Source: Cenococcum geophilum 1.58
Taxonomy: Eukaryota > Ascomycota > Dothideomycetes > Gloniales > Gloniaceae
Direction: 5' to 3'
Assembly: GCA_001692895.1 (NCBI GenBank)
Contig: KV748176.1
Span: 5,547,092-5,611,091 of the forward strand
Length of the DNA stretch: 64,000 nt
Shown: one piece after another, positions 13,672 to 46,673 of the stretch
Position numbering within the stretch: the stretch's first letter is position 1
How the letters are laid out: each line of letters starts with the position of its first letter
Notes under the pieces: generated by a model
The model's input: the letters and a program-made list of their open reading frames with translations, nothing else
Databases searched by the model: none
What the model was told of the DNA's origin: nothing
Made by a program: the position numbers and the translations under genes

Positions 13672-15540
13672 TTTATTGTGTAGGAAACTGCATTAGGAAA
13701 TGGAGGCTTCCTTTACGGGTAAGGCGCCCTTGCTTATTAACCCCGACCAAGCTAAAACTGCCCCTCAACCTCAACTATAAAAGGCTATTTCTCTCGCTGC
13801 TTTTCCTCTTATCCTCTATCTTTCCTTTCTCCTAATACTGCGCCTCCTTCTCTTCTTGCTGCTAGTCCCTAGTATAGTCGTATTAAGGTATTTCTGCCGT
13901 CCCTTTAGCGCTAATGCGTATATAAGTCTAGCCCGCTTATTGCTTTATTCCCCTATATCTTAGACTAATAATTAATATAGTTAACTACGGCCTTTCCGAT
14001 GGGCGAGTCTCTATTCTACAGTAATGTATAAATAGTCTTAGCCTCCTCTCCTAATTCCCATCTCTGGAGCCAATGGCTTTAATTTTTATTAACCTCTTTT
14101 AGCGCCGCCTCTATCCGCTAAGCGCGTCCATATCCTTATAATTCTATCCTCTCTCCTTTCGCCTTCTAGATGGCGCTGGTCCGCAACCGTCCTATAGGAA
14201 GGGGGTTAGGGGAATTCCGTACTTACCAGCCGCGTTAGCACTATTGTCTTATTTAACTCTGCCGCATATCTCCTTCTAAGGTAGGGAGGGATAGGTATGC
14301 CGTATCTGCCCCCTTAAGGGTTTAAGCGAGCTTACGTCGCACTTATTTTAGCTAACCTACGCGCTATTTTCTCACCTATAATATACTGTTAGTTAGATAA
14401 CCCGCTTTAGCGTTTGCCGATAGCTAAAGCCACCTATATTACGGCTAGTATACTTACTAGGCTACCCAGCAGAAAAGCAGCTAGACGTCGCCGATTTAAG
14501 CGACTACCCCATATAGGGCTGTGTTAGGTATTATTCAAACAAATATTATACGGAGTATTGCCTAGGTGGCCATGCATGCCTGCCTAGTAGTATAGTTATA
14601 TTGCCACAGATGTTTTAGAGATACCGTTTAATCTACTAGTTTAGGGCTAAGGGGCTATTAGCTCTACCTAACTACTTAGCGGTAAAGCGGTAAAAGATTA
14701 ATAATCCGGCCTTCTAAGCTATAGGGCTATAGTAGGAACCACCTGGATTAAAATTAGAAGGTTACAGCTTTTAGGCGTATAATAGATCTGCGGCACTACG
14801 GCATAACTGCGAAGAAATCTCTAACACTAGCCAGCTATATTAAGAGGGCGAGCATTATATAGCACCTTATGTAGCACCCTATGCAGTCCTTTACCTAGCG
14901 CATTTATATATCTATATACGATCACTATATAAGCGGCAGGCGTATCTGTTACTAGGCAGTTAGCATTAAAAAACCCCACCTACTACTAATAATAATACTG
15001 CCTCCTTCCGTTATAGATAGCTTATAATGCGCACGCATAAGTAGGGCTTTATATCCTATTAATACGAGCGGCGCAGAAGATTAGCTGGATTGGCATTATT
15101 GGGAAGTAAATAGATATATTAGTACTGCCCTTTACTAAGGAATAAGGGTAGAGAACTTAAGCTACTAACCTCCTAATAAGGGGCTAGATGCGACAGCTAT
15201 ATTAAAGCTAAATATACTAGCTTAAATAGGCGGATATGGTTTAATCGTAATTTACTAAAAGTGTTAATTAGGTGCTAGGAATTTAAGCCCTTATAAACCT
15301 TTATACCCTATAAATAGTAATTAACCTTAGTCTATACCGGAGGCGCACATATTAAATGCTTTAATTTAATAAGAAACCCGGGTGAGGGGTAAAGGGTAAA
15401 GGGCAATAGGCGAGTACTAGCGGTAAAGGGAGGACTGACGTGCACTTAAAAAGACCTTTAATTCCCCCTTAAAGCTTTTAAAAGCTATAAAATAATGGCA
15501 ACTCTAATAATAACAACGTTGGCACCACCTTAGTCTTTAT
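13672..15540. other. Left (3') end of the Starship-like element, no gene seen
   Basis: GC-richer than the G2 sequence beside it. It has pyrimidine-rich promoter-like tracts (for example 13800-13860) and a TATA-like CTATAAAAGGC at about 13776. I could not read a protein of known family on either strand. Confidence 0.4.
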
Positions 15541-15554
15541 TTTATATTTCTCCT

Positions 15555-17530
15555 AAAATTTCGCTTAATAAGAACAATTTCTACACTAGTCCCCCTAGAA
15601 AATTAATAGCTTTATCTTAGTACTATATAATTACGGCCCCTAAGAAAAGCGCGAGCAGTAAGCTTAAAAGGAGGAGTAGGAGAGTACCTCTTTTTCCCCT
15701 AAAAAGTTAAGAAGCATTATAAGCTTAGGCACTTAACGGCATGTTATTCCACCTAGGGCCTTAATTTAGATATTCCGTCTAATAAAGCGCCTATAAACCC
15801 TATATATAATTATAAGAAAGCTAATAATAAGTATTATAAGGATAACGAGGATAATAAGGATAATGAGGATAACGAAGAAGATTTCTATGGGGATGAAAAT
15901 GACAGTTAAGTCTCTAGAAGAAGTAATTAAGGTAATTATCCCAGTAATTACCCCACCACTTTTCCTTTTTCCCTAGTAGTTCTAAATATATAGTTTTAAC
16001 GACTAGTAGCAAATCCAATAATTATTAAAGACAATACAGCTAATCTGGACTTAGAAACTAAGGGCAATAAAGCTAATAATACTAACAATAAAGCTAACAA
16101 AGCCAATAATCGACCGACACCTTATGAATTAGGTATACGCTTCCCCCCTTAATTTATAATAGCTTGTTTAACAATTAGTAGATAATAGGAATAACGGTAA
16201 TAGTAAGGGCAATAAAGATAATAAAGAGCTACCTTTGTTAAAAGCGCTAGAAGAGGAGGTACACATACCTACACACAATCGTACTATACCCTTAACGCTA
16301 GACGGCAATTAAACGGATAATTTAGTTAAGGGGCGTCACATTAGAACTACTCTATAGTTTAGGCAGGAGCTTAGGATATTAGTAGCTGCCGGCTAAAAGT
16401 CTTTAGGAGCCAAGAAGTTAAAGAAGCGGAGGTCCGATTAGCTTAATTAACTAGGCAGCATTAATTATATCTCTAATACTTCTATTAGTAAGAGTAGCAA
16501 GAGCGTATAACTTAGGAAGTAATAAAGGTTACCTGCTTCCTAGAGGACCACGCCTTCTAGCTCTCCTACCCTTAGCCTTAATAACTGTAACGGTATTAAA
16601 GAGCGAGCAGTCTCTACTACGCGGCCCACTAGCTTCTCCCCCTAGCACTGTATGTCTTCTTATAATACTAAACCACCAGAATATAGGGCTAATAACCATT
16701 ATAATTATATTCTAGACGATTTTGTAAACGGCTTAACTAAAGAAAGTAATAATAAGGATGGCGAGAACGTTATAAATAAAGGTAAGGCCAGGAACTACGG
16801 TAATGGAAGTAATAATAGTAATAATACGGATAATAACAACTCTGGGGACGGTAATAGTAGTAGTAGCGATAAGGATAACGAGGCCCGTAGGTATATAGGG
16901 CGACAAGGATTACTAACCCCCATTACTAGTTAATTAAAGGTAAAGCGTACTGCGAAGCATTATTTCCAGCGGTTTTACTATTCCCCTTTAATTTTATCTA
17001 CGTATACGTCCGACTAAAGCACTGCGCTTACCAGCAATTATCGTAAGTAGGTTGTATCCCCTATATATAATCGCCTCCGTACCCAAAAACTGCTACTAAG
17101 CGCCGCCTCTAGTTCCGACTCTAATAAAGCAATACTAGGAGCCGCCTTAAATGCTAATTTAGAAGAAATTTTAATCTAAGCAGCTTTTAGGCGCTAGAAA
17201 GACGGGTTATATATACTAAATATTCTTTCTTAACGATTCCCTTTACCTTTTAACCTAGTTAAGTAGCCTTAGGAGCTAAAGCCCTAAGGGCCAAAGTCTA
17301 GAATAAAATTTACTAAAGAGGAAGACGCGCTACTTATTAACCTAAAAGGGAAATAAAATCTTTTATAGGACTAGATTAAAGACAGCTTTCTAATAAAAAG
17401 TCTTAGATTACTATAGGGGCATTACTATTTAAAACTAAAGGCTTAGCCTGTTGTGTAGAAGAAATAGGGGCGGCCTACTAGGCGGAAGAATTGGTAGTAA
17501 TAGTACTGTTCTTTTTAGCCTAAAGTTTTA
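15555..17530 (+). pseudogene. SANT/Myb-like DNA-binding protein, Asn-rich, RIPed
   Basis: The plus strand keeps a coding pattern across about 2 kb. The first part is rich in Asn, Ser, Lys and Asp (runs of Asn-Asn around 15830-16100 and 16740-16890). At 17306-17445 a SANT/Myb-like helix set reads KFTKEEDALLINLKGKQNLL, ending in YYLKLKAQ. That matches the fungal pattern in which a tryptophan-spaced three-helix domain starts with (F/W)T.EEDALL..LK and ends in RY..KLK. The tryptophans have become stops or other codons as RIP predicts. The family binds DNA, usually as a transcription regulator. Start and exact end are uncertain. The only long clean frame (16652-16933) is the Asn/Ser-rich part. Confidence 0.55.
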
Positions 17531-17699
17531 TTTCTAGCTTAAGTTCTATTTACGGCGTATCTTATAATTTCCGGATTAATAAACTTAATCCCTATATAAC
17601 CTAATAGGCCAGTAACTAGAATTTAAAAATTGCTGCTAAAGAAGCCGTAGTTTAAGGCTGGAGGCGTAATATTTACCTAAAACATTAACCAACTAAGGC

Positions 17700-18930
17700 C
17701 CGTTTTTAGGAGCGTAAACGTTATCATTTTTATCGGGGCTATTTAAGGTATGCTTTATAAATTCGAGCATCTGGTTATTAAAGAAATTCTACTATAGGGA
17801 AATGAATATGCATTGCATAGCTAGATTAGTACGTATATCCTATCTATTAGTATATAATTCTTAATGGCTTTAAGGACTTCTTTACACCGCCTATCCTTTT
17901 TATAACTAATAAACGCGAAACTGCATCTTAGTAACTACCTATTTCTTTTAGCCTTATCTAACGCACGCGTAATAACTACCTTTAGCGATGGATACTGGAC
18001 TATCCTTATCTCCTCTTTGCCCTTATTTATTCTAGTCTGCACTATAAGTATAGAATAATGCTAGCGCTTTAGAGAATTATTATAAGATCTATCTACTACT
18101 CCGTTAAGTGTAAATACCGGCCTATCTTTATCCTTAGAAATTCCCGTTGGTATCTACTCGCTAGTAGGGCTATGGATTATATTAATGTACTTTAGGAGTT
18201 TAGGATTGTCTAATAACTAGTAGACGATCTTTATACCGTGACGTCTATATCCTAATACTGCTTTAAGCCCAAATGTTTAACAATTATTAAGATAAAGTTC
18301 CGCCGTTATAAGAAACTTATTAACAAAATCTTTATAGCGGTTAGTTTTCTTCTATGAGAACGTAAACTAGTTACTTATATAAACTTTTAGATACTCCCTA
18401 ACTGGTGCTTCTATAGCTGAACTAAAAACAGTTAGCTAAAGGACGTAGTCCCTAACTAGTGCTACTAGAGTAAGGTAAGGTAATGTCTCGGTCTTATTAT
18501 CCTTATCCGTTGGGGATTTAAGAGATAATAATTATATAGGGGTTAAGGGTGCGCCTAGTTCCTCCTTAAAGTGGCCTTAAGTAAGCCTATCCTCCACTCT
18601 AGAGTATATAGAGGGGGTTTTAATATTACTAGGGTAGGTTAGGTCCTCATTAGCATTTGTAGAAGAGGGAAAGGGCTAGCTCGGCGTGCTAACACTAGAA
18701 GGAGTCGCTGTCGCTCTAACACCGCTAAGAGAGTTAAGCTTAGAAGGCATTGGCCTCTTATTAATACTTACCAGAGGGCGAGAAAGATAGGGCTAAACGC
18801 TTATTATTATATCGTCTATACTAGAGTTAGTAGTAATTACCGTCTCCCTAATGCTGTAAGAAGAGTTAAGCCTAATAGGTATTAGTTCCTTATTAATATC
18901 CACTAAAGAAGGGGGATAAAGATGGGGCTA
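17700..18930 (-). pseudogene. Unrecognised RIPed gene with Ser/Pro-rich repeated N-terminus
   Basis: Minus-strand coding pattern. A Ser/Thr/Pro-rich start contains two tandem units of about 120 bp (centred near 18760 and 18880, each with GAGTTAAGC/TTAAGC cores), one with an ATG at 18750 (MPSKLNSLSGVRATATPSS). Downstream comes a globular-looking part with segments such as DNPKLLKYINIIHSPTS and DRPVFTLNGVVDRSYNNSLK. I do not recognise the family. Several in-frame stops of RIP type are present. It lies between the SANT/Myb-like gene and the insertion site of gag-only element A. Confidence 0.35.
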
Positions 18931-19636
18931 GATGTTGCTCGTTATATTATTAACATAAGAGTTTATAGTGTTTTTATTAGCCTTATCTAATAATAAGTCT
19001 CTAGTGTATATAATTCGCCTTTAGTTACTTATAGAGCTAGCAGCCTAATAGCTCGGAGTTTCTATAGGAAGTTATTAATAGATTTTCGTTGCCGGTTATA
19101 GGAGGGAAGTATTTATAGGAAATAGGAGTGGGGTAAACTAAGTAAACATTTATGTAAGGGAAGTATAGTAGAGCTGCTGGCACTAAGCGGCTTTCTATAT
19201 ATAGGGCTGCCTAAATCCTCCGTAAGCTAAAGCGCGTGGTGTATACGCCTATAGCTAAATCGAAATACGGTAATAACTTAGAAATACTGTAGACGTTTAT
19301 ATGTAAAGTTTATTATTAGTTACACTTATATCTAAATACCTTATTATATCCTAAGGGAACGGCTTAGCGTTTAAATACAATAAGGCTAAATAGAAGTAAA
19401 TAGTAAGGCCTGCTCTTATAGTTCTCAGAGCTTAAAGAATTGCGCTAAGATAGTCAGCCTATATAGGACATTCTACTTTTAATTTTATAGTGGAGACTTA
19501 GCGACTAGAAGAGCAAATACCCTACATTTTTAGGTAAGTAGTAGCATTATAGGGCATAAATTTACATAAGGCATAGCTGCGTTAATTAGGGTACAATACG
19601 CTACTAATTTCGTAAGGCGAGACAGGCACTACTTAC

Positions 19637-22602
19637 TGTCTGTACGAGTAGAGGTTACGTGGTCATGTCTCTGATTAGTCATCCTTACGGTGACTCATTA
19701 GCCCCCTATTTAGGCACCGCGATCCTTACGATCCTCTGCGAAAGACACGAATGAATTAAAGAACCTGTTACCTTATATTGCAATTGCAGTACCCCCCCAG
19801 GTAATACCGACACTGATTAGTTAATATTACAGATCAGCCAGGTGTTATTATGAAGAGAGGCACTACGCGATCGCTCCTACCAAGGCCCGTTAACTATGTT
19901 GTGTTTACTAAGGAGAACTCTTCCTGTATAGGCCCTGGGAACTTAAAGAACCGACTCCTCTAAGGCTTTATTTGGTTCGCGTCTATTACGCAAATTAACC
20001 CCGTATAATCTCTTTACTAAATGCCAGTACCCCTAATACCTAAGAGAGACACCACGCGATCGCTCCTACCAAGGCCCGTTGATCTTGTCGCGTTTGTTAA
20101 GGAGAACCCTTCCTACTAAGGCCCTGGGAACTTAAGAACCGACTCCTACCAAGGCTTCGTTCGGTTCGCGTCTACTACGCAAAATCAATACCTAGTACGA
20201 CCTCTTTACTGAGCGCTAGTACCCCCTAATACCCATTAACCGCTTAATATGTAAGACTATAACCTACACTATAATCTATGCTAGTTAATTATGTCTAATA
20301 CAGGAACCTAACGTCTAAACTAGAGTAATAGAATTACCTTAACTAACGAGACTACCGTAGAAGACATTACTAACTATATTAACTTTAAAATTAATAAGTA
20401 CACTAAATATAACTTTAAAGACAAAAGCCTATAGGAATTATACTAAGAGGACTTTAATAATTTTAAGGTATAGATATTTAAAGACGCTAATAGGCCTATA
20501 CTTACGGGACTTAAATAACTACTCTAACGCAACGGAGTATGGGTCTTTAATAAGAAGAGCAAGTTAGTACTATAAGCACTGTATAATGTCGCCCACGAAG
20601 ACAACCCTACGGAATAATTAGATGCAGAAATTAAGCTATACATTAATAATAAAGGACGCTTTAATTCGTATATTATTAACTACCGTCTTAAATTACGTTT
20701 ATTAACTCCCTTAATAGCACCTACCCTGACCCCAGCTATCTCGAATAACCTCCTTACGGCCGAGCCTCCCTTACCTATAAACGTTACGGCTCCCCCTACG
20801 GACGTCACGGCCCCCTCTATAAACGTCACAGCTCCCCCTATAAACGTTATAGCTCCTTCTATAGAAGCTAAAGCCACTACCTATAGCAGAGACTTAGTAA
20901 CCTTGGTAAAGATATATATAGAGGAAAGCAAGTACAGCGGAGAGGATAATAACTTTAACCGCAAGCTCACGATTTTTAACGACCTTTGTAATAGGGTTGA
21001 TATACTATAAGAGGTAAAGATTAAAGGCTTTCTGACGATGCTATAGGGTATTACTTTTAACTTCTACTATAAGAACAAGGTAACCTATACCACCTTTAAC
21101 AGCATCTATAATGCTATATACAACTACTTTAAAGGACTAGAATATAAGCGTAGAATCTTAATAAAATAGAACGCTATAACCTTAAAGACCGTAATAATAA
21201 AAAATAAAGGCAAGTCTATAGGGGACTGCCTATAGCTACTGCTTAACGACCTCCGTCATTTACAGTATGGTCTTGACGCTAACCTCCGTAATAACGACTT
21301 CCTATATAATAAGCTCATCATCACTTGTTAAGACGTCACTGCTTACTAGGTAGCTTACTCTAACCCACCTACTACACTTACTGGCCTTATAAACAGCCTA
21401 TAATCGTTAATTATTACTTATAAGAAGATTAATAGTACTATAGGATAACCTGCTAATGTGTTTTTATAGCCTACAGAATAGCCTACGGACGTATTCTTTA
21501 CTGACCGTCGCTACCACCGACTAACGTCTCGACTAAGTTCATTAAATAATCGTTATAGTAATAATGCTAGGACGTGCTTTGTGTGTAAGAAAGGAGACTA
21601 TTAGTTAACTAGGCATACTAAAGAAGAATATAATGAAGTAAGAGAAGGATTTAAAAGATATGTCCACTAGTACCTCGCGGATAATAATATCAACGACGAC
21701 TTTAACAAGGATATAACGGCTATGGCATTTAATATATTAACCCCAACTGCAGTTCCTACTAGTGGTAACTTCTTTTATAACGATTATGGTATTAAGCACT
21801 TTATAACCTTAAATGGACCAATACTAATTAAAACGGCTAAGAATATAGTCATATCTATAAATAATAATGCCTTTACCTATAGCCTTACGGGTAGCATAGA
21901 GCTTAGTAGTATAGACCCTAGTAGTACGGAACCTAGTATAGTAAGGCGCGGTGATGTTAATAATAAGAGTAGCAACAATAAGGGCAAGAGCGCCACCTAC
22001 CTCTATAACAATAACCCTCCTAACCTTACCGTTAATATTAACTTCCTTAACTGTCATTTTAACGATAATGGATAGGACTTAGCCCTTCTACCTGCTTCCC
22101 CTATAGTCTGTGACGACTTTTATACCTTTTAAAGCCGCTATACCTTTGGTTTTAACTTTAACTACGCTCTGTTATAGGACACCTTAGTAACACCTTATAC
22201 GCGCCTACTTGTCTCCACCGCAATATCCAAATATTCACGATATCCGCAATATTCGCAATATCCGTAGCGATATCCGTAATACCCGTAATAATATCCGCAA
22301 CGTCTGCAATATCCGTAATATTCGCAATACCTAAGATATTCGCGATTACTGCCCTAAGCACCTGTTGACCTATATACTTCTCCTTTATACTTTCTTACCT
22401 TCTTTCCTTTTTATAAATGTCGCCAGTGTCTATACGAGTAGAGGTTACGTGGTTATATCTCTGATTAGTTATCCTTATGGTGACTTATCAGCCCCCTATT
22501 TAGGCACCGCGATCCTTATAATCCTCTGCGAAAGATACGAATGAATCAAAGAACCTGTTACCTTATATTGCAATTGCAGTACCCCCCTAGGTGATACCGA
22601 CA
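19637..22602 (+). mobile_element. Gag-only LTR element A
   Basis: Two 176-bp LTRs (19637-19812, 22427-22602) begin TGTCTRTACGAGTAGAGG and end TACCGACA, with perfect CTTAC duplications at 19632-19636 and 22603-22607. Between them is a plus-strand copia-type Gag with a zinc-knuckle segment (CFVCKKGDYQLTRHTKEE, near 21580) and a tail of about 600 nt holding an ATATCCGCA-type microsatellite (22215-22340). There is no room for integrase or reverse transcriptase. The LTRs differ at roughly 14 sites, all transitions, which fits RIP. The structure looks complete for a non-autonomous element, with many breaks in gag. Confidence 0.85.
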
Positions 22603-22639
22603 CTTACATTAGGCTTTAATTTAAGCGCCTATCTTTAAT

Positions 22640-23480
22640 GATCCGTATAGCTATACCCCTATACGTACTACCCGCTACTTATTTTTATATATTGTTTTAT
22701 ATAGGATCCTACGGGAGCCCCTAAATAGGTTTATTAGTTAATTCCCCTTAGGATTCCTTATTCTCTAGAACTAAAATATAGCTTAGTGAAAACGTGCTAG
22801 TTATAATATTTATATTAAAACTAACTAGTAGCACTTCTAATAGCTTTCGGTATACGCCAGCTTATAGCCTTCTAGCTTACTTTATTTAACCTATTATCTC
22901 TTAGTCTCTTATTTACGCGTTCTAAAATTTCCTCCCTTTTAGGTAAATTTATATTATTCTAGCCGCGCCCTAAGGTAATAATATTTCTAGCTTCCTTATT
23001 TGTAAATTTCTACTAATCCTTATTAAAAAAAGGCGCCTTAGCCTAGGCCTATATACTTGCTAGGAAACGCTGCTACTGCTTTAGGTTATACTAAACTGCA
23101 TCCCGCACCTGCTTTATAGTAGCATTAGCCCTAATATCTATTATGCGTAGTAGCGTTTAGAAATAGGTATTAGTGAAATTACTAGGTCCTAATATGTCGT
23201 AATAAAGCAGGGTTTTACAAATAGAGAATTTTAAGTTATTTAAGTGTCTTGGTTAACGCCACTAGTATTACCCCTACTAGTTTGGTTTTATAAGACTAGT
23301 CCTCCCGCCTTCCCCGGGGTCGCACTAACTATTTAGCTAAACGCCGCCGGTTTTGGCAGCCGCGCTAGACGTAGCCCACCTAATACTTCTACTACGTCAC
23401 GGAATATGCAGAAAAACTATATAAGGTTATGATTTAGGCAGCCCCTAGCTAATACGTCGGATCTTTCTTATATTGATAGC
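22640..23480 (-). pseudogene. Unrecognised RIPed gene fragment
   Basis: On the minus strand a continuous pattern with few stops includes APFFNKDQQKFTNKEARNII and KREEILERVNKRLRDN. It is lysine- and arginine-rich and probably helical. No family recognised. It follows element A directly and may be the upstream or downstream part of the gene into which A inserted. Confidence 0.3.
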
Positions 23481-24552: not shown

Positions 24553-24601
24553 NTANNCTTATAGTNCGGCGCTNTNGTTTATAAGNACTAAAACNNTATA
24601 N
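24553..24601. other. Cluster of ambiguous bases
   Basis: Ten Ns are spread over these 49 bases. This is a low-quality consensus spot, not a scaffold gap. Others occur at 58885-58905, 60399 and 60447-60448. Confidence 0.9.
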
Positions 24602-27425: not shown

Positions 27426-27429
27426 GATA

Positions 27430-30741: not shown

Positions 30742-30899
30742 AGATGTTGTCTTTAAGTTTTACTTAGCTAATATAGGAGCTACCTTTATAAGGAGGATAT
30801 CTCTTTATTAATTTTGCTTCTGTAATAATAAAGCCTATATAGTAGGCTAGAGCGCGGGCGAATTACTTATAGATCTAAAAATAGGAGAACGGAAGCTAT

Positions 30900-31554: not shown

Positions 31555-33870
31555 CTAGCCTTAGCCGCCCAAATCTTTAGTCGTGCTGTAGAAGAGTATA
31601 AGATAATAAAATATTATTCTATCTACTCTGCTAATACCTTTAGATCCTTCTATACTTGCTAGAGTATTTTCTTTATCCTAGAATATAGCTCTAGATTATC
31701 CTTCTCCTACCTCCTACTATTTAGAAATACTATTTTCCGGAGCCTATTAACCCAGGGGACTAATAACTAATAGTACGGCGTAAAGTACTCCTCCGCTGTT
31801 TTAATAAAATCACCTTTATAAGCTACCTCTCCTTTTTTTAACTTAGCTAGCTCTTTAGTGTCCATATAATTCCACTTCTTAAACCTTAGGATAGGCTTGC
31901 GCTCCTTATTTAGACCCTTATAATAAATATATATCTAAAAAAGCACCTAAAAGAACAACTCCAAATCATACCTAAAGGAGTATTTTTTGCCTAGAAGCAC
32001 TCCTATAGCTATAAACACTCTTATACCGGTCTTACCCCGTGCTCCTAAAGGTCCTTCTTACTTCTCTTTAATTACGAGATTAAGATTAATTAAGAATGAC
32101 TTCTAGGAGGGATTGTCGTCTTCCTCGTTTATTAAGAGGTTGCCTATTAAAATATTACGTTAGAAGATGCCAGCCTACGTATATAAAGACTTATATCCTT
32201 TAATGCTACCCTTTAGCGCAGTAAGTATTGCAGTCGGAGAGCTTGCCTTATAAAGAGCCTTTCTATAGTCGTAAGTAATGATATATTAATATACCCAATT
32301 CTATATAATAGGGCGTTTAATTAGAGAGCTCGAACACGGGCGCTTATTAGGCGGTAATAGGGCGTTAATATAGCTGGACGACCTTTTTCTGCTAGTACTT
32401 TAGCCTTTCCTTACACTGCCTTGCACTCTAGCTACGCTTAGAGGTACCATTAAGCTTTTAGGCTTATAGTTTGTCGCTTTAGTAATATCCAGCCCCTTAC
32501 GGATATTAAAGATATTATTATCTTGTCCACTTATACAAACAGTCCCATAGTAATAGTACCTAGCCACGTTAATTACTCCTTTCTCCGCTGCCTTATGCAG
32601 CAGTTTACCTTCTTCCTTACGCTCTAGGTACTGCCATAAGTCTTTAATAATAAGAGGTATCTTAGAGGTGTTACCCTTACGGTGTATTTTCTAGTAAGTT
32701 GTCGCTTAACTAGTAATGCAGGGTGCCCGCTTTATAAGTTCGTTAAGGATAAGACGCTTAGTCTGATTGTTGCGCACGACCTTAATATATCGTTTACCGT
32801 CTAATATTAAAATAGTAGGGTTAAACCCGAGCTACTCTTTATTTATTAAGAGAAACCCTAATATCGCCGAGGTAAATTATAGTCCGTCTTTATTAATATC
32901 GAATAGTAATAATACGATGCCTTCTACCTGGTTATATTCCCATAGCCGTATAATAAATCTATAGAGGGTAAAACCTAGGATAAAGCAACGATTGTCCTAA
33001 GCGGCGAAGACTTCCCTTATATATTTCCCTAAAGCAAACCATGCCTATAAGGCTATATCGGTGTTTAGATTACTCTTTAGCTCTCCTAGTATAAGTATAT
33101 ATAACTAATAGCATTAAGAGCTTTCGCTGGCTATTAGATTATCCATAAAACTAATATTTAGCTTTCGCTTCGCCGTAGACCCTTATAAGGGCTGCTTAGT
33201 ATATGCGACAAGCTTTCGTCATATCTTTAGGGCGGACCCGTACTCCTCTGCAAAGCCTAAAAATAATTTAATTAGGTTATTAAACTACTCTAGGATATTA
33301 TCTTGCTCTACACTTTTAGGCTAGTTACGCTAGCCGCCCTTATCGGCGTATAGTGGATTATCCCCTTCCTTGCATTTCTTAAAAACGGCGGCGCTTACCT
33401 CTTTAAGACCTTCCACTCCTCTAAAGAATACTTTATATAAGCCAGGAATCCCCACGTAAAGAGGGCCTAGCTCCTCCTTTAAAACATTATCCACGTATTT
33501 TCTATATTTGGACGAGTTAGCGAAGCTGCTTATATTACGTAGATGTAGGGTTTAAACGTAGAATAGTAGCGGTTAGGGGGAAGGCGTGGACTCCGTAATA
33601 GTAGCGTATACCTTTTCCTAAATGACTTTATTAGATTTAATCCGGAGGATCGCATTTAGAAGAGGCAGGAACTATTTAACGTCGAAGTTATCAGAATTAA
33701 CTACTAAATTAAGTCTTAATAAATCACTAAGGAGGTTTTTATTGCCGCTATTGGACGGCAATAAATAAAAAGTAGGAAGGCTTTATAGAGCAAGTATTAG
33801 ATTAAGCAAAATATCCTTTAGTCCTATAGGCGTTAGATAAAAACTTATAATAGGTCTATTAATAGTTACC
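31555..33870 (-). pseudogene. FunK1-type fungal protein kinase, RIPed
   Basis: The minus strand shows the long FunK1 layout. The N-terminal part is LPLLNAILRIKSNKVI. The middle has LGKYIREVFAA, FTLYRFIIRLWEYNQVEGIV, FDINKDGL and LGFNPTILILDGKRYIKV. Then come NVARYYYYGT, RKGLDITKATNYKPKSLM, the catalytic-loop region AGIF-RNILIGNLL (32139-32180), FLINLNLVIK and SGARGKTGIRVFIAIGVLLG. In live members the loop is HRD and the metal site is DxD; here both aspartates read as Asn and the His is lost. FunK1 kinases are a family expanded in fungi, with mostly unknown targets. About a dozen stops are present. The start is not certain. An open frame on the plus strand at 32767-32964 is a shadow. Confidence 0.8.
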
Positions 33871-35320: not shown

Positions 35321-35329
35321 AATCTTTTC

Positions 35330-36000: not shown

Positions 36001-36766
36001 GGCTCTTAAGGTAATTAGCATATATTTCCGTATCCTCTTATATATCACCCTCCGTATTATTATCGATTTTATAAGAGTTAACCTTATTAGGTATTTAAGT
36101 AGGCGTATAAGGCATCTGTTTCTACATAGGGTTAGAAAGCTATAATTATTTCTTCTCCCTGCTAGCAGATGCTATATCTTTATTGTTAATGCGATTTTAG
36201 GATAATTTAAGGTTTCTAGCAAGTTAATAAATAGGTATATTATCTTCGGGGCGATAGCATATTATAATGTTTTTATAAGTACCGATTAAGGACCTATAGG
36301 TTATGTTAGCAACGTATCTAAGCTTAGTTAAGGTAATATATATAATGTCTAGTATTCTTATAGGGATGTTAAGGGATATATAGTCAAGAGGTCAAATTTA
36401 AAGGTAAGTCAAATTAATGGCATATAAAAACCAGGAGCACGACGTTTATATTCCATTTCTCTTCTAGGGCAGAGTTAGGATAGAAGGTAGAAGGGAAAGG
36501 CGGAGTATACTAGCCGCCCTTTTCCACTTTATGTGGTGTCTATAATACAATATTTAGTGGCTGTAATTACTCTCAGCTTATATATTGTCTGCGCCCGAGA
36601 CTATAGGTGCCTAGAGTGATCTATAAGTAAGGCATTATTAGGGGTAGCTATTAGCTAAGCTGCTGCTAAACTTAAATAGCTAACAATCCCTAACGGACGC
36701 CGCATGCCTTAGTAGGGTTTAGAAGCGTTCGCATAAAGTTATAAACTAGAATTAGAAGTTAACAAT

Positions 36767-37480
36767 GACCCCTAATAACGCCTCTCTTAGTAGGAATAGC
36801 ATTATATAATCTACTTCCGACGCCTATCCTTCCTAGGGCAAGACACTACCTAAGTAGTAGACTTATCCTAGCCAGTTAATCTTGTATATTGACCCCCCAT
36901 CTATAGTAAAGGAGCTGTTAGTGCCTTTAGGGTAGTTTAATTGCTATTCTAGCTAAGCCCTTTATAAGCGCTCCGCCTTATATAGGTGGTAATTAACTTC
37001 TATTAATCTGCCTTATATTAGGGGAGATCTTTTACTTAAAGCGCTAAGCAGCCGGTACTTAGAGGTCTATAGGCTTATTCTATATCCTAATAATATCGAC
37101 CACGATTTTTCCTTAAGTGGTATCTATAACCCTAAGTACCTATAAGCGCAGCGTCCCTAAATTATCAGCTAGTAAGTAGGCGTTTATAGATAAAGAAACC
37201 GACTTTAGAGATAATGGCAACGTAGAGGCGTTAGCTAGTTAGGAAAGTAACTTTAGTAATAAAGATTAAGAATAGGATGCAGAGACATTATATAACGGAG
37301 AAAATGGTTTTAGTACTAAAGATTAAGAAATAGGGGTAAATAGCAATAAAGAGATGTTAAGTAACGAGGCTATATAGGCGACGGTTAGATATAGTGGCCT
37401 TGGCTTTATAGTCTTAAATCTATAAATATAGGGTATAAATGTAAAGAAGATTTCTAATAAAAGCTGGTAAAAGGGTTAAA
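36767..37480 (+). pseudogene. Unrecognised gene, acidic C-terminal part, RIPed
   Basis: ATG at 36767 gives MTPNNASLSRN, then IDPPSIVKELLVPLG, YLEVYRLILYPNNIDHDFSL, and in another frame an acidic Asn/Glu-rich part (ETDFRDNGNVEALAS). Either an intron or a frame change separates the two. No family recognised. Upstream at 36420-36760 is a GC-richer block that may be its promoter. Confidence 0.3.
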
Positions 37481-38039
37481 ACTTTAGCCACTTTTCGTTT
37501 AGCCTATCGCGAAACAAAATAATATTTTACTATTCCTACCAAAGTCTCTGCCTGCTTAACTTATAGCGAGCTATAAAGCATTCGCAATAATCTATACTTT
37601 TACTTAAATGAATTTATTTACTACCTTAAAAGTAATAATAGAAGGAAAATCTATGTTAACGACTTAGGATTTTTTGAATTTCTTATAGACCTGGGACGCA
37701 TGCCACCTTAGTAACTATTAGTTGTGTTTAAGACTACGGTACTTATAGATTTATATCTTAAGGATATAAATATGTTTTTTATAGTGTTTTCTTTTTATTT
37801 AAATTATTTCTCTACTTATAGTATATAGCGGTTGTTTATCTATTCCGGTGTAGTAGGGAGGGGTAGTTGGGTTACGTAAGAGGGGTTAGACTTATAGCTA
37901 CGCTTATAGGGCTGTTTATATAGAAACTTCTCTAAGTATATATAAGGAGTCTTTATATAGGAACTTCTTTAATATTTTTAAATCTGGGACTTATATATTT
38001 CTTTTTTTTATAGTTCTAGTATTTTCCTAATATTTGCTT

Positions 38040-38690
38040 CCTATTTATATACTAGGCGTTAATAAAGGGCGCTAGGTTAGATTACCCTACTTATATAATC
38101 ACTTTACTTACACAATTACTCTACTTATATAATCGCCTAGCTTATACAATTACCTAGCTTGTATAATTACCCAACTCGCACAATTACCTAGCTCGCACAA
38201 TTACCCAGTTCGTATAATCGCCCAGCTCGCACAATTACCTAGCTCGTAGGATTACCTAGCTCCTATAAGCACTATACTCGCATAGTTACCTAGCTTGTAT
38301 AATCACCTAGCTTATAGGATCGGCTAGCTCCTATAAGCATCTAGCTCGTATAATTACTTAGTTTACACGATCGCCTAGCTTGTATAATTACCTAGCTTAT
38401 AGGATTACCCAGCTCCTACAAGTACTATACTCGCACGATTACCTAGCTCGTAGGATTAGCTAGCTCCTATAAGTATCTAGCTCGCACGATTAAAGCCGAA
38501 GTTATTAAACCTATTAATACCCTATTTATACGCTAGGCATTAATTAAAGGGCGCTAGGTTAAACCACTTTACTCGCATAATTACCTAGCTTGTAGGATCC
38601 CCTAGCTTTTATAAGCCCCTAGCTCCTATAAGCCCCTAGCTCCTATAAGCCCCTAGCTCCTATAACCTCCTAGCTTATAGGACCGAAGCC
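38040..38690. repeat. Minisatellite, unit about 17 bp, with a higher-order repeat
   Basis: Dozens of copies of ACCTAGCTCGTATAATT and variants. A longer word, AGGCGTTAATAAAGGGCGC, starts the array near 38050, and a near-copy (AGGCATTAATTAAAGGGCGC) lies about 480 bp on, so a larger block was duplicated. Units vary mostly by C/T and G/A changes. Confidence 0.8.
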
Positions 38691-39994
38691 ACAGCCGCTA
38701 AATCCGTTAAGATCCTTACTGTATATGCGTTAGAGCAGGCACTTATAATATTATTAGGTTAGTATAGGGGTATATATAAAAGATAGGCCGGTATATAGGA
38801 TATATTAGTATATAGCTAGGGAAAAAGTAGAATAGTAAAATTAGCGGGCTGGTACGCAGAAATATAATACTATTTAACTTTACTTAATATAGCTTAGAGG
38901 AGTGTAGAGCCTTAACCTAAGCTATAGGAATACGTCCTTTAACTAAGCCTCTATTATATAATCACTAACTACTTTTAGGCGCTGCGGCCGCATACCCCAC
39001 TACTTACCCTTTTTAGAACTTTAGAAGTTATACTAGTTCTTAGTTAAGCGACTAACGTTTAAAGCTCTAACTAACTAGCTAAATCTATCGTAGATTAGAT
39101 AAAGCTAATAATGACTTCTTAATGTATATATAGAGGCTCTAGAGCTACGTTTAATAAAGTAGAGTTCTTATTCTTAATCGTCCTGTTTAATACTAAATCA
39201 CTCCCTTAAATATTGCTCGAGACGCAGTTAAAACTAGAGAAATATGCTATCTAAGAGTATTCTATTTAGCTTAGCGCAGCTTATAGATAGCGAGAAATAT
39301 AGCAACTTAAAACTTATATACCAGGGGCTGGAGTTTAAAGTCTATAAAGCGATTATATGCACCCAATCTTCTATACTTACAGCTACCTATAATGGAGGCT
39401 TTTAGGTAAAAGCTAACTAAATATCTAGTAGAATTAACCCTAACTAACTAACTAACGGGTAGGAGGCGGCGACTAATATTATAAATATTAACGAGTTCGA
39501 TTCCGGCACCGTTAAGAGGATAATCTAATTTATGTATAAGAGGGACTATAAGAATGGCAAGGAGGAGCAAGGATCTAATATCGACAACGCCGATGCCTTA
39601 TTGCTATCTAAACTAGATAATAGCGGTGGCGATAATAAAGACATAATAATACGGCTGACGACGGCCTATATTATACTTCGTCACGTCTATATTAATATAA
39701 TTACCGATTACTATAATATACTATAGCTAAAAGAGCTTATAAATATAAAAATCTAATATATTCTAGGAACCAGCTAGTCTATAGATGGGTTTCCTAATAT
39801 TATTAAGGATGTCTTTAGCCTACGTCAGGAAAAAAAATTTTGGGCACGTTGTCGCAAGCGAAAATCGGGGTCTGCAAAACCTGCGTAAGTCGCAATTTTG
39901 GCAATTTGCGGCGATTTGTAGCGATTTACTATAAACACACAGGCTACTCGTGTAAATCGCCGTAAATTGCTAAACCCTAATTTTTAGCTGCAAC

Positions 39995-40975
39995 AAAAAT
40001 ACTATAAAAGCTCTGTATAAAGCTCTGCACGGGGCTTTACACAAAGCTCTACGTATAAAGGCTCTGCATAAGGCTCTATATAAAGCTCTACACGAAGCTC
40101 TACACGAAGCTCTATACGAAGCTCTATATAAAGCTCTATACGAAGCTCTATATAAAGCTTTGCACGAGGCTCTATATAAGGCTTTATATAAAGCTCTACG
40201 TATAAAGGCTCTGCACGAGGCTCTATACAAAGCCCTACACAAAGCTCTACACAAAGCTCTGTATAAAGCTCTATATAAAGCTCTATATAAAGCTCTATAC
40301 GAAGCTTTATATAAGGCTCTATATAAGGCTCTATACGAAGCTCTGCGTATAGAGGCTCTATATAAGGCTTTACGCAAAGCTCTATACAAAGCTCTATACA
40401 AAGCTCTGTGTAAAGCTTTACATAAAGCTTTATATAAGGCTCTACACAAGACTCTATATAAAGCTCTGCGTATAGAGGCTCTATATAAGGCTTTACACGA
40501 AGCTCTGTATAAAGCTTTATACGAAGCTCTATATAAAACTCTATACGAAGCTCTATACGAAGCTTTGTACAAGGCTTTACACAAGGCTCTATATAAAGCT
40601 TTATGTATAAAGGCTCTGTATAAGACTCTATACGAAGCTCTATATAAAGCTCTATATAAAGCTCTGTACAAAGCTCTATATAAAGCTCTATACAAAGCTC
40701 TGCACGAAGCTTTACATAAAGCTCTGTATAAAGCTCTATATAAAGCTCTATACGAAGCTTTATATAAGGCTCTACATAAGGCTCTATATAAAGCTCTATA
40801 TATAGAGGCTCTATATAAGGCTCTGTACAAAGCTTTATACGAAGCTCTATATAAAGCTTTATAAAGCTCTATACAAAGCTCTATATATAGAGGCTCTGCA
40901 TAAGGCTCTATATAAGGCTCTACGCGAAGCTCTACGTATAGAGGCTCTACACAAAGCTATACACAAAGCCTTTAT
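39995..40975. repeat. 12-bp minisatellite (TATAAAGCTCTA type), RIPed
   Basis: About 80 units of 12 bp grading from CACGAAGCTCTG to TATAAAGCTCTA, with occasional inserts such as CGTATAGAGG. Because 12 is divisible by 3 and the unit has no stop in these frames, long open frames appear on both strands; they are not genes. Confidence 0.9.
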
Positions 40976-41124
40976 ATATGCGTGCGACATATTACTATTA
41001 GGTCCCCGCTATATTCCTAATAGCCTCTATACATGCCTCTGCTAAGTATACCCCCTATATACACCTAGGTAGCCACCTTATTTTTTACCCTTCTTTCCTT
41101 ACATCCTCCCTACCTAAGGAGACA

Positions 41125-41885
41125 CCGGAACGACGGCCGGCGGACGACCGTCGCCATCGCTAGACGACCGTTGCTAGAGCTAGACGACCGTTGCTAGAGC
41201 CAGACAGCCGGAGCCAGAGCCAGATGACCGTCTCTAGAGCTAGACGACCGTCGTTAGAGCTAGACGACCGTTATTAGAGCTAGACGACCGTTATTAGAGC
41301 TAGACGACCGTCGCCAGAGCCAGATAACCGTCGTTAGAGCTAGACGACTGTTGTTATTGCCAGACAACCGTTGCTAGAGCCAGATGACCGTCGCCAGAGC
41401 TAGACGACCGTCGCCAGAGCTAGATGGCCGGAGCCAGAGCTAGATAACCGTCGCCACAGCTAGACGACCGTCGTCAGAGCTAGACGACCGTCGCTATCGC
41501 CAGATAACTGGTTAGAGCTAGACGACCGTCATCATCGCCAGACGACCGTCGCCAGAGCTAGACGACCGTCGCTATCGCCAGACGGCCATCGCCAGAGCTA
41601 GATGACCGTCGCTAGAGCCAGACGACCGTCGCTAGAGCTAGATAACCGTCGCCAGAGCTAGATAACCGTTGCTAAAGCCAGACGGCCGGAGCCAGAGCTA
41701 GATGACCGTCGCTATAGCTAGATGACTGTCGTTAGAGCTAGACGACCGTTGCTATTATTAGATAATCGGCCAGAGCTAAACGACCGTTATTATCGCTAGA
41801 CGGCTGGAGCTAGAGCTAGATAACCGTCGCTAGAGCTAGATAACCGTCGCCAGAGCTAGGCAACCGTCGCTAGAGCCATATAATA
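41125..41885. repeat. 18-20-bp minisatellite (AGACGACCGTCGCCAGAGCT type)
   Basis: About 40 units containing the palindromic core GACGACCGTCG. The reverse complement of the same unit forms the arrays at 56935-57050 and 57335-57710. Confidence 0.9.
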
Positions 41886-41944
41886 ACCGTTTAAATAACT
41901 AGCCAGCGAATACTATAAACGATTCGATTAATCGATTAAATTAA

Positions 41945-42215
41945 GGTAATATAAATAGGTAGGCATAGGTAGGTAGGTATAGATAGGTAGGTAGGCATAG
42001 ATAGGTAGGCATAGACAGGTAGGTATAGATAGATAGGCATAGATAGGTAGGCATAGATAGGTAGGTATAGATAGGTAGGTATAGACAAATAGGTATAGAT
42101 AGGTAGGTATAAATAGGTAGGTATAGATAGATAGACAGATAGACAGACAGACAGACAGGTAGGTAGATAGGTAGGTAAGTAGGTAGGTAGGTAGGCAGGC
42201 AGGTAGATAGGTAGG
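41945..42215. repeat. TAGG/TAGA short-unit repeat
   Basis: Units of AGGTAGGTATAGAT and similar, ending in pure (GTAG)n. The reverse complement appears at 56600-56885 and 57055-57145. Confidence 0.9.
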
Positions 42216-42334
42216 TAGATAGCTTTATATTTTATATAGCTATAATATAAATATATTTAAAAGTATATTATAGCAATCTATGGAAATATGTAATAATTTA
42301 GTTACTATATAATATAATAATAATTTATATAGTT

Positions 42335-42440
42335 ACAATTTGTATAGTTTATACAGTTTGTATAGTTTATACAGTTTATACAGTTTATACAGTTCGTATA
42401 GTTTGTATAGTTTATATAGTTTATATAGTTTGCGCGCTAT
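42335..42440. repeat. 10-bp repeat GTTTATACAG
   Basis: About ten units of GTTTATACAG or GTTTGTATAG. No counterpart in the second minisatellite element. Confidence 0.85.
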
Positions 42441-43194
42441 ATAATTATAGGGTAGCAAAATGCTAGCATTAGTTTAGTAGTTAAGCATTTTACTACAATT
42501 TGCTAGTAGACGCTATAAACTTATTGCGAAATGCGCGGTTTATACAAATCGCTAACAACCATATACGACCGCCGCGATCGTACAGTTTACGGCAATTTGC
42601 GGCAAACCGCAACAACCTGCCATAAAAAAAATCCTGATGTAATAGGCGACTTAGCATTATATAATATAATTACCTTAATAGCGGCTAAGTATATTAAAGA
42701 GCTTGTTAAACTTAGGGACTTCGTAGAGCTAGACGTTATAAGCAATTTTGCTATTAGTATTATACGGACAGCGATTACCGCATCTAAGGATATAGAGGAA
42801 AATTTTATGCTAAAACTTTAAGCTGTCTAATCTTAGCTATAATAAATAGAATTACTACTTTAATCCGCCGAGGTAAGGTATGTCGCGGCTGAGCGCAAAA
42901 GTAAAAACATTAATAACTGTCTTAATACCCTCTGCACGACTAGGACCTGTTATAATATTAGTTATAAAGCCGAGTTTATATATTATATTAAGGATAGCAG
43001 TTATCTATCTAACCCTAATTACCCTTATATACTTTGTTGTAAAAGGTGTGAGCGTTATATATAAGTAAAGATATATAGCTTAGGAGATCGGCTTAGGTAG
43101 GAAGTCATTATATTGTTTAGGTTGATCTAAGAAATTCAAATGTATATCTCGTCCATAGTCGATCTGTTAGATATTGTATAGCAACTATATTATC

Positions 43195-43330
43195 TATCTC
43201 CTATTAGCCTCTCCTTACTTCACCCTTTACTCCTTACCCCTTACCCCTTACCCTTTACCCCTTACCCCTTACCTTACCCTTTATCTTATCCTTTACCTTA
43301 CCCTCACTTTTACCCTCACCTATTACCCCT
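43195..43330. repeat. CCCCTTA-type repeat, telomere-like
   Basis: Irregular run of TTACCCCTTACCCC and TTACCCTTTACC units, so the other strand reads GGGGTAA and GGGTAAA. It lies just 3' of the captain gene. The units are not the exact fungal TTAGGG telomere repeat. Confidence 0.7.
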
Positions 43331-43499
43331 TGCCCCCCTGGACGAATTATAAAATCCTAGTTATTATATTTATTCTACTAAATACTAGAATAGGATTGGA
43401 TAATAATAGACTAAAATAAAATAAAAAGTAGTAAAGAATAATAAGATAAGCGAGAAATGACTAGGAAAAGGTCCTATATATAAGGAACGTATAGTTCTA

Positions 43500-46096
43500 A
43501 ATTTACCAGTTATATGCCTTTCTATTAGTACTAGAGGGTTAGTATAGGATTCTCGTATAAGTAAGGCAACTTACCTAGCGGTGCCTCTTAATTAGATACT
43601 ATACGCCATGCATAAGGGCTGCGTGATTTTTAAAATACTTAAGTCCTTTAATCCACTCTAAATAATAAGGATACTTATAGCAGAACCTTTACCTAAACAC
43701 TCCTTCTATAACATAATTATTAAGATGCTTTTATAGTGTATCCTTCTTTACAAATAGGCGGGTCTGCCTTAGCGTTAAGAGTTAGTTATTGCCAATATAG
43801 ATAAGGCAAATAAGATTAGTAAACGTCATAGGATGCGGCAGCTGTATTATCTTAATACCCTCTTCCTTAATTGGGACCGCGCTCTACATCTTATCCGGGT
43901 TTTTTTAGAAAGGCGAGTCTAAGCTAATATATTCTTTCTGCCGCTTTGCCTATTAATGGGTACTAGTATTAGTGTTACTTACACCTCTTTTTACGCCTAC
44001 TACACTTTAGTCTACTTTAGACCTAAGTTAAAGTCCGATAGCCTTACTTAGGATCCCATTCTACTAGCTCTCTTATTAATTATAATACTTAACAAGATTA
44101 CGGATAAACTTTATACGGAGTTTTATAGCGTACCCTTCTTTAAGCTCGTTTAGCGGCTAAGACAGCAGTTTAGCAATAGCAGCATGTTTACGAAATTTAT
44201 ACTATATAGCTAAACGGGTGGGAATGTCCGTCCTAATACTACTACTAAGCTGTCTTTTAATATTATAATCGTCGATAATATTATAAAAATTAAGAATAAC
44301 CTAGTCCTCTTTTTGTTTATATAGAACGTTTGTAATACTATAAAGTTTACGTCTGGCTTTATCGTAACGGTTGTATAGTTTCGTTCCCTTTACGGCATTA
44401 ATAGGGTAATATCCTCGGCTCCTAATCTTTTGTTTATATCGCTCTCGTTTCTTATAAAGCTGTAAAATATTAGGGTATTAATTAAGTTTTAACTAGAATT
44501 TAAGCTTTTACTTATTAGTTAGACCTATAGGGGCCCGCTCGTTTCTTAAAATCCCTATCCGTGCGGTATATTAGATAAGGTCGTCCTATAATAGAGTCCT
44601 AAAGTAGATTAACTGGAAATCGCGCTTAATTAAATTAAGTAAATAAAACCGTTAGTAGGTATTGCCGTAATGACCTATTATCTGATTTCGCTCTTCTAGA
44701 GTAAGGGTGGCTAGAAAGGTTAGTTAATAGATATACTTATATTAAATCAGATACTTACTATTTAATTTTCTTCTAAACGCTTATTATAGCTAGTAAAGTT
44801 TAAGCGATTATTTAAACCCGGCTACTCAGCCTAACTATATATAGTGATCGCGGCATTTCTAGTAAGGGAATGCTTTGGTGTCTAATACTCCCCTATAACT
44901 AGCCATTATCTTAATATCTTAAAAGATAGGTTATTCCTCCATCTGCTTCTTAAACTTCACTTTAAGACTCTCTTTATTTACTAGGATTTCGAGTTTAAAA
45001 ATCTCTTCTAGTAAAGTATAATGGCGTTAAAATATATTATCCGTAATAGCAAGGCTTATAAGATAGGATAGAATATAAAAAGCTAGGATGTTTTTAAGAT
45101 AGAAAATAAACCTCTTACTATAGGTCTATTAGCGCCATTCGCGCCGTCTTTAATCGGCGTTACTATATACCGTCTACCTATACCTTTAGAATTCTTAATA
45201 TATATAAGACTTACGAGGGCGACAGTTATAGTTTAATTAAAGTTTTTTGCATCGCGAACTTTTAGGATTATAATATGTTTATATAAAAGCGCTTTATTAG
45301 AGCCTCTTACGCTTAAACTTTTAATAAGAGCTTAGGGTCTTATTGCCGTGGCACTAGAGAGGAGGAGGATTGCTCCCATTTGCACTTAAAAACGACTATA
45401 GTAAGGCTTTACGTCTATTATCTAATGGGCATTAATAATTACATATAAGTCTTATATATATATTACATGCTTTTCTTTCTCCAACGTATTTAGCTCGTAT
45501 ATTAGCGTTAAGTAGGTTAGAATCCACTATAACAAATTAGCTAAGTTTTTTTTTTAAAGGTTAAAGATCGCCCTATATCTTGTATATCAAGTTCTGCGCT
45601 ATTATTTATACTATAGCCTACTATATCTATAAATTTGCACAGAATTCGTCTCTAGTACGCCTTAATCGCGCTTTCCTTCTTAATTTGTGAATTCTTTACG
45701 CGCTATTTAAGGTATATTTTAAGCGTATCGGCCACACACTAATAAAGGGCCTCAGTTAGGTTAGACTTAACTTTTAGGTAGAACCTAAATATAAATCGTT
45801 AGTATTATAAGGTAAATCTTAGTCTAAATATAAACGAACTTTTCCTAATTCTAGAATTTATGCTTAATAAGAGAAGTAGACCAGGGCTTCTATTTTAACT
45901 TTACTCTTCCTTAACCTTTATAATACACAATCCTCTACCGTAAATATTCCCCCTTAGACTTAGCGTCTTCCCTAACTCTAGAGTTAGAGCTTAAATCTAA
46001 GTTTAAAGCTAGCTTAAAATAAGACGGCTTACCTAGTTTAAGGTCTAAGCTAGAGGCTAAATCTATATTTTACTATTTTTTGCTTTAAGAAGGCAT
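43500..46096 (-). pseudogene. DUF3435 tyrosine recombinase (Starship captain-type), RIPed
   Basis: From ATG 46096 the minus strand keeps about 865 codons of DUF3435 pattern. The N-terminal third has ADTLKIYLK and KKESAIKAY. The middle has GSNKALLYKHI-like and IKNSKGIG-like traces, in mixed frames. The catalytic half has LEEIFKLEILVNKESLKVK, ALPY...CRDHYI-LG-VAGFK (44818-44880) and the recombinase box EERNQIIGHYGNTYQRFY (44645-44700), which keeps the His and the nucleophilic Tyr. The paired arginines before AFRRKLN have become stops. A C2H2-like tail (LFVKKDTLQKHLNNYVIEGV, then FKNHAALMHGV) ends it near 43500. In live elements this enzyme cuts and joins Starship ends. It starts 577 bp from the right edge and faces inward, the captain position. 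Confidence 0.85.
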
Positions 46097-46673
46097 AGTA
46101 GTTAAACGCGTGGTGTCTTAGTGCTTTAGCAGCTGCTAGTTACCTATACGCAGAAGCTAGCTTAAGAGTAACTGCTGTTAATAGGAACGCTGAAAAAGGC
46201 TCTACGGGAGATAGGCGTTTTTAAGAGTGGGATAGGGCCAAAAAACCCCGTAAGTAGAAACCTAGAAATTGAGTATTAGAAGTGAATAATATAATAATAG
46301 GGGAAAATATATATATAGCTACTGTGGGAAAAGGGTTAAAGGAGCGTAGTGTAGAAGGGAGGTTTTATTGGGTAAGGGTAGTGCTTTTAGCAGAGGATAA
46401 GGACAAAGGTGGAAACTAGATTAGGTAGGCGGCGGATGTCTATAGCTTCTTAAATAGCTATTAAGGGACGTTTAGGGAGCTTTGAGAGGTATATTGTAGG
46501 GCTGCACGCGCGCTTCTAGGTTTAGTGGGTAAGGGAGACCCTACCGCCCTTGGCACGCTTAGTATGTTATAAAAGCGGTAATAGATATGGGTCTAAGCAA
46601 GAAGAAATAGCCTCCTAAAACGGGGGGTAGGAACCTCTAAATCTGGCTGCGTCTTCCCTAATAATAAGATTCT
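46097..46673. other. 5' end and probable captain promoter region
   Basis: 577 bp between the captain start and the right edge of the insertion. GC-richer than G2 beyond the edge. No gene. The terminal 30 bases show no clear inverted match to the left end of the insertion. Confidence 0.5.

What the first reader, a model, noticed from the sequence alone, without database searches (positions are those of the whole stretch)
13672..46673. Fossil Starship-like giant transposon with exactly defined edges
Seen: a 33.0-kb block lies between two copies of AGTAGTTAT in Ty3 element G2, and the flanks are consecutive parts of one pol region. The first gene from the right edge, facing inward, is a DUF3435 recombinase. 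Known: in Starships the DUF3435 captain is the first 5' gene and faces inward. Inferred: this is a RIP-killed Starship of moderate size that landed in a retrotransposon. Nine bases is long for a captain-made repeat, so it may instead be a recombination core.
Basis: partly seen in the sequence, partly recalled or inferred. Interest (0 to 1): 0.9.

Follow-up and report, generated by a model that had tools for sequence, protein, structure and literature searches.

The report
Mutation-killed Starship transposon inside a retrotransposon
A 33-kb stretch of what looks like fungal DNA is most likely the decayed remains of a giant Starship-type jumping element that once landed inside an older jumping element; it is a cleanly bounded example of a kind already known.

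Summary
A 33,002-bp block (13672-46673) lies between two copies of AGTAGTTAT. The flanks are consecutive parts of one minus-strand Ty3-type pol: reverse transcriptase on the right, RNase H and integrase on the left. Joined with one copy of the 9-mer, the flanks stay in frame there and align, with no gap at the junction in protein or DNA, to a divergent paralogue in the same window (56008-54737) that lacks the insertion. The first recognisable gene from the right edge, facing inward, matches PF11917 DUF3435 (79.6 bits, E=3e-22, 19 stops in 286 codons). No other mobility domain reached E 0.1 in six frames of the block. A broken fungal-type kinase is the only clear cargo. All 33 one-kb windows of the block carry a RIP signature. 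Published Starships measure 15-700 kb, have 2-12-bp direct repeats in one curated set, and many insert into other TEs, so nine bases is not unusual. Terminal inverted repeats were not detected. Captain family, other copies, orthologous empty sites and host could not be tested. Verdict: a dead new member of a known kind, of modest interest.

The parts
13663..13671 (.). left copy of the 9-bp direct repeat AGTAGTTAT (3' end of the element in captain orientation)
46674..46682 (.). right copy of the 9-bp direct repeat (5', captain end)
13672..46673 (-). 33,002-bp inserted block: fossil Starship-like element, captain end at 46673
44238..45095 (-). DUF3435 (PF11917, profile 97-365 of 418) tyrosine-recombinase captain, E=3e-22, 19 in-frame stops in 286 codons; the gene probably extends beyond this on both sides (inferred)
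31932..33119 (-). broken fungal-type protein kinase (PF17667 Pkinase_fungal, profile 19-122 and 110-386 of 387), E=8.9e-18 and 2.3e-60 in two adjoining queries, 17 stops in 396 codons; cargo
19637..22602 (.). short LTR element (two about 177-bp LTRs, 92.7% alike) nested in the block, 5-bp target duplication CTTAC at 19632-19636 and 22603-22607
40002..42222 (.). compound minisatellite in the block (12-bp, 20-bp, then 14-bp units); a second copy, inverted, lies outside at 56602-58546
46917..47396 (-). reverse transcriptase domain of the interrupted Ty3-type element (G2), right flank
11895..13671 (-). rest of the same pol in the left flank: RNase H from 13665, integrase zinc finger 12960-12793, Tf2-1-like SH3 12074-11895 (other frame)
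54737..56008 (-). divergent Ty3-type paralogue (G3) that runs through the position homologous to the insertion (about 55121-55129) without the block: paralogous empty site

Best explanation
The block is a dead Starship-type transposon of 33 kb. Its DUF3435 tyrosine recombinase (captain), at the 5' end (right edge, minus strand), cut the element out of a donor site and integrated it into the pol gene of a Ty3-type retrotransposon, leaving AGTAGTTAT on both sides. The element carried at least a fungal-type protein kinase gene. A short LTR element is nested in it. C-to-T mutation at CpA sites (RIP) put stop codons in the captain and the kinase, so it can no longer move itself. Shown: edges, interrupted gene, direct repeat, captain domain with position and orientation, cargo domain, RIP signature, nested LTR element. 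Inferred: that this captain did the moving, that excision and re-integration was the route, that RIP caused the stops, and that uniform RIP reflects a time when the element was present in more than one copy.
For: Interrupted pol with RT and RNase H on opposite sides and a frame-preserving 9-bp duplication. Alignment of the joined flanks, with no gap at the junction, to a paralogue without the block. PF11917 at 79.6 bits, minus strand, about 1.6 kb inside the right edge, with no other Pfam match at E 0.1 or better in the 4.3 kb at that end. No other transposase, helicase or polymerase domain at E 0.1 or better in six frames over the block. Kinase cargo. CRI positive in 33 of 33 one-kb windows, range 0.84-1.59; CpA observed/expected 0.41. 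[quoted passage not shown]
Against: No terminal inverted repeat: 140 of 1000 and 124 of 2000 random end pairs scored as well as the real ends in two tests; 18 of 20 high-confidence Starships in PMC12153272 have one. DUF3435 genes are more usually found alone than as captains (PMC12134995 passage), so presence of the domain is not proof. The profile covers only positions 97-365 of 418. Only one copy of the block is known. Of the genes that PMC12134995 lists as prevalent in Starships (DUF3723, ferric reductase, patatin-like), none appeared at E 0.1. The empty site is a 36%-identical paralogue, not an allele.
Confidence: 0.86

Rival explanations
1. A different DNA transposon that makes 9-bp target duplications (for example a Mutator-like element) carried the block in, and the DUF3435 gene is a passenger or an older solo insertion.
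For: Nine bp is the classic Mutator-like duplication length (recalled). DUF3435 genes are often solo. RIP and decay could hide a transposase.
Against: No transposase domain other than DUF3435 at E 0.1 or better in the block. No terminal inverted repeats detected, which Mutator-like elements usually have (recalled). The DUF3435 gene sits where a captain should, facing inward from the edge.
Confidence: 0.07
2. A small Crypton-like tyrosine-recombinase element or solo DUF3435 gene lies near the right edge, and the rest of the 33 kb accreted by nested insertions.
For: The window is a nest of insertions: a short LTR element in the block and others outside.
Against: The two outer edges share one duplication and restore one pol reading frame at the junction, so the outermost event was one insertion at this site. 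That first insert may have been smaller than 33 kb, but apart from the 3-kb LTR element no nested element was recognised in the block.
Confidence: 0.05
3. Not transposition: DNA captured at a staggered double-strand break, or an assembly join between two retrotransposon fragments.
For: At least three Ty3-type fragments lie in the window, and repeats favour misjoins; the window has 16 ambiguous bases, though none at the edges.
Against: A misjoin would not be expected to give an exact 9-bp duplication that keeps the frame, together with an inward captain at one edge.
Confidence: 0.02

Closest known systems
Starship giant transposons of Pezizomycotina fungi (captain = DUF3435/PF11917 tyrosine recombinase)
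   Same: Captain domain first from one edge and facing inward, short direct repeats, size within 15-700 kb, a cargo gene, insertion into another TE.
   Different: Dead, with a RIP signature over its whole length; no terminal inverted repeats detected; single copy known; captain family unassigned.
Element-wide RIPed, gene-poor Starship of Gaeumannomyces tritici type A (PMC11905480, passages)
   Same: A Starship under 100 kb with RIP over its whole length.
   Different: Average CRI there is 0.2-0.3; here the 1-kb values are 0.84-1.59. No sequence was compared.
Galactica-family Starships (Lamia) of Aspergillus fumigatus, predicted target A(N)TAGT (PMC12153272 Table 1)
   Same: The repeat AGTAGTTAT contains AGTAGT, which fits A(N)TAGT.
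   Different: The fit is on the strand opposite to the captain, the passages read did not state a strand convention, and 879 of 41,993 9-mers in 9000-51000 fit on one strand or the other, before counting the other published motifs. Mean lengths of Lamia types are 65-291 kb. A lead only.
Cryptons
   Same: Tyrosine recombinase mobile elements, first found in fungi.
   Different: Captain and Crypton recombinase domains are very distantly related, and Starships differ by a variable, often sizeable cargo (PMC12134995 passage).

Membership tests
Starship | DUF3435 tyrosine recombinase | tested here: met
   PF11917, 79.6 bits, E=3e-22, cut-off 25.8; 19 stops. Catalytic residues were not verified by any search.
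Starship | captain is the first gene at the 5' end and faces inward | tested here: met
   Domain at 45095-44238 on the minus strand, right edge at 46673; nothing else at E 0.1 or better in six frames of 42400-46673. A gene without a Pfam domain cannot be excluded.
Starship | flanking direct repeats, 2-12 bp in the curated A. fumigatus set | tested here: met
   9 bp, identical; range from PMC12153272 section 11
Starship | empty insertion site | tested here: met
   Paralogous site only (G3, 36% identity); no orthologous strain could be searched
Starship | terminal inverted repeats (frequent, not universal: 18 of 20) | tested here: not met
   140 of 1000 and 124 of 2000 random end pairs scored as well. 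Not a required feature; RIP could have eroded them.
Starship | size 15-700 kb with cargo genes | tested here: met
   33,002 bp; Pkinase_fungal E=2.3e-60. Only one clear cargo gene.
Starship | same element with the same edges at another locus or strain | not testable with these tools
   no genome held; no fungal collection offered
Starship | captain assigned to a named family | not testable with these tools
   no reference captains held; viral contigs and genome contigs gave no relative
Starship | host in Pezizomycotina | not testable with these tools
Mutator-like or other transposase-driven DNA transposon | DDE transposase in the element | tested here: not met
   none at E 0.1 or better in six frames, stops as X; strong decay could hide one
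Mutator-like or other transposase-driven DNA transposon | terminal inverted repeats | tested here: not met

The most novel reading that the evidence does not exclude
This captain's lineage may use a site at the start of the Ty3-type RNase H region as a dispersed, multicopy safe landing place, much as some Starships use 5S rDNA. The site here is three in-frame codons within the first 20 or so positions of the RT_RNaseH_2 profile, and at least three Ty3-type copies lie in this window. Against it: the G3 paralogue shares only 5 of the 9 bases at that place, and only one insertion is known.
Probability: 0.07. Interest if true: 0.5.

Novelty: new member of a known kind. Interest (0 to 1): 0.3.

Why it matters
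Dead Starships can be hard to delimit once their edges erode. Here the interrupted pol gene and a relative without the block in the same window fix both edges to the base, apart from the repeat's own ambiguity. That suggests a usable method: retrotransposon coding frames as built-in empty sites. It also adds a small, fully RIP-decayed example to the record of Starship turnover. It does not change what is known about how Starships work.

Tried and rejected
Terminal inverted repeats: the best pairing (TTATTGTGTAGG against TTATTATTAGGG) is no better than random ends. A second copy of the block inferred from the compound minisatellite at 56602-58546: to the right of the arrays there is no homology (58.0 against a maximum of 87.0 in 20 shuffles); to the left it is marginal (62.0 against a maximum of 61.0) and off register (39004-39178 against about 58574-58754), so I drop it. 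Weak matches below their curated cut-offs are not claimed: BTB (39277-39606 plus, E=0.004), DUF445 (about 40043-40534 plus, E=0.0055, inside the 12-bp array) and GNAT (24799-24638 minus, E=0.014); 36 translations were scanned. PDB search with the captain region: 0 matches at E 1. Relatives of the captain: 0 of 3 pattern matches in viral contigs and 0 of 69 in genome contigs were confirmed. Searches for a published link between FunK1-type kinases and Starships showed none in the listings (24 papers, none with the word FunK1; 1 paper; 15 of 157 listed); the name FunK1 is recalled, the Pfam name is Pkinase_fungal. Comparing scores of the separate and joined flanks is not evidence: 126 and 188 apart sum to more than the 301 joined; what counts is that the alignment crosses the junction without a gap. 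No structure was predicted: the captain is full of stops, no alignment was available, and I preferred not to read through stops in an unnamed fungus. Pfam was not run on 1-8999 or 56251-64000.

Full report
Check of the observation. AGTAGTTAT occurs at 13663-13671 and 46674-46682, and identity does not extend beyond nine bases on either side. The 9-mer itself is unremarkable in this AT-rich window (6 matches, 3.4 expected, 11 of 100 shuffles with at least 6), so the weight lies on what surrounds it. With stops masked as X, six-frame Pfam scans of the flanks put RVT_1 at 47396-46917 on the minus strand in the right flank (E=2.3e-12). In the left flank, minus strand, they put RT_RNaseH_2 from 13665 (E=4.8e-14, starting at profile position 19), RT_RNaseH (E=7e-14), Integrase_H2C2 at 12960-12793 (E=4.7e-6) and, in another frame, SH3_Tf2-1 at 12074-11895. 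These are consecutive parts of one Ty3-type pol. The nine bases are three whole codons in both the RT frame and the RNase H frame.

Empty site. Another Ty3-type element in the window, at 56008-54737 on the minus strand, carries RVT_1, RT_RNaseH_2 (profile 2-100) and RT_RNaseH in one frame. The two G2 flanks joined in a script with a single copy of the 9-mer align to it over 424 columns (E=1.6e-34, 36% identity). That protein alignment has 55 gap positions; all but one lie more than 100 residues upstream of the junction, one lies about 50 residues downstream, none is at it. The DNA alignment likewise has gaps elsewhere but none in the rows that hold the junction (joined-sequence positions 595-714). 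The homologous place in the paralogue is about 55121-55129; it shares 5 of the 9 bases. This paralogue is divergent, so it is an empty site by homology and not an allele. With the offset fixed by this alignment, an identical run of at least nine within 60 bp was found at a rate of 0.00135 among 20,000 random pairs of positions.

Captain. In the 4.3 kb at the right end, one of six frames matches PF11917 DUF3435: 79.6 bits, E=3e-22, profile 97-365 of 418, at 45095-44238 on the minus strand, the direction that faces into the block. There are 19 stops in 286 codons. The stretch ERNQIIGH followed by RFY resembles a motif that I recall from captains; no call verifies the catalytic residues. No other Pfam match at E 0.1 or better was found in this stretch, so none lies between the domain and the edge.

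Rest of the block. Six frames over 13600-42450 (translations) gave one clear domain: Pkinase_fungal on the minus strand, 33119-31932 (E=8.9e-18 and 2.3e-60 in two adjoining queries), with 17 stops in 396 codons. Matches to BTB, DUF445 and GNAT are below their curated cut-offs. No transposase, helicase or polymerase was found at E 0.1. A short LTR element at 19637-22602 has its own 5-bp duplication CTTAC. A relative at 50691-53475, outside the block, has GTTAT. The two differ by 368 transitions and 54 transversions, 235 of the 368 transitions being next to an A or T so as to fit CpA/TpG in at least one copy.

RIP. CpA observed/expected is 0.41 and TpA 1.54 in the block, against 0.91 and 0.94 in 1-1500. 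The composite RIP index is positive in 33 of 33 one-kb windows of the block (0.84-1.59). The RIP reading is by analogy with known fungi. RIP normally needs duplicated DNA (established knowledge), which would mean that the block was once present in more than one copy, but spread from the surrounding repeats or slow decay in heterochromatin is not excluded.

Comparison with what is known. From PMC12153272 (sections 6 and 11 and passages): captain at the 5' end, direct repeats of 2-12 bp in the 19 of 20 high-confidence Starships where they could be identified, terminal inverted repeats in 18 of 20, Tardis repeats of 9-11 bp. From PMC12134995 (passages; [quoted passage not shown] From PMC11905480 (passages): one lineage with a gene-poor Starship RIPed over its whole length. 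Passages of PMC12506042, PMC12257634, PMC12289983 and PMC11623301 were also seen; in Verticillium dahliae (PMC12289983) most TEs in Starship regions lack the RIP signature, so heavy RIP is not the rule there. The absence of terminal inverted repeats is the one tested feature that goes against the common pattern; it is not required and could be due to RIP.

Target motif. The repeat contains AGTAGT, which fits A(N)TAGT, the predicted target of Galactica-family Lamia elements (PMC12153272 Table 1). It fits on the strand opposite to the captain, and 879 of 41,993 9-mers in 9000-51000 fit on one strand or the other. I treat it as a lead for family assignment.

Limits. The window's genome is not held and no fungal collection is offered, so copies elsewhere, orthologous empty sites, the captain family and the species are open. 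Scans of viral contigs and genome contigs with the captain found no relative, which says little because neither is a fungal collection.

Noticed in passing
40002-42222 and 56602-58546: The same compound minisatellite (12-bp units, then 20-bp, then 14/17-bp) occurs twice, in inverted orientation, once AT-shifted inside the block and once more GC-rich outside it. No homology was established beyond the arrays.
   Followed up: partly
47649-49700 (approximate): A short LTR element with two about 170-bp LTRs (94% alike) sits in the G2 pol region just upstream of RT; AAAAG appears on both sides as a likely 5-bp duplication (printout).
   Followed up: partly
50691-53475: Short LTR element with 5-bp duplication GTTAT, relative of the one nested in the block; it holds a stop-to-stop frame of 198 codons (51600-52196).
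   Followed up: partly
10464-11240: Remnant of a further Ty3-type element: an integrase zinc-finger match just below its cut-off, and 306 bp 89% alike to the stretch just downstream of the G3 RNase H domain (54430-54735), apparently truncated.
   Followed up: no
1-2000: The only 500-bp windows with CRI at or below 0; GC 0.53. Probably the edge of a normal genic region.
   Followed up: no
43222-43304: ACCCCTT/ACCCTTT tandem array downstream of the captain domain, faintly telomere-like.
   Followed up: no
59805-60015 and 61298-61515: Direct repeat pair, 93% alike, possibly LTRs of another short element.
   Followed up: no
24553-24601: Cluster of 10 ambiguous bases inside the block (8 short runs of N).
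   Followed up: no
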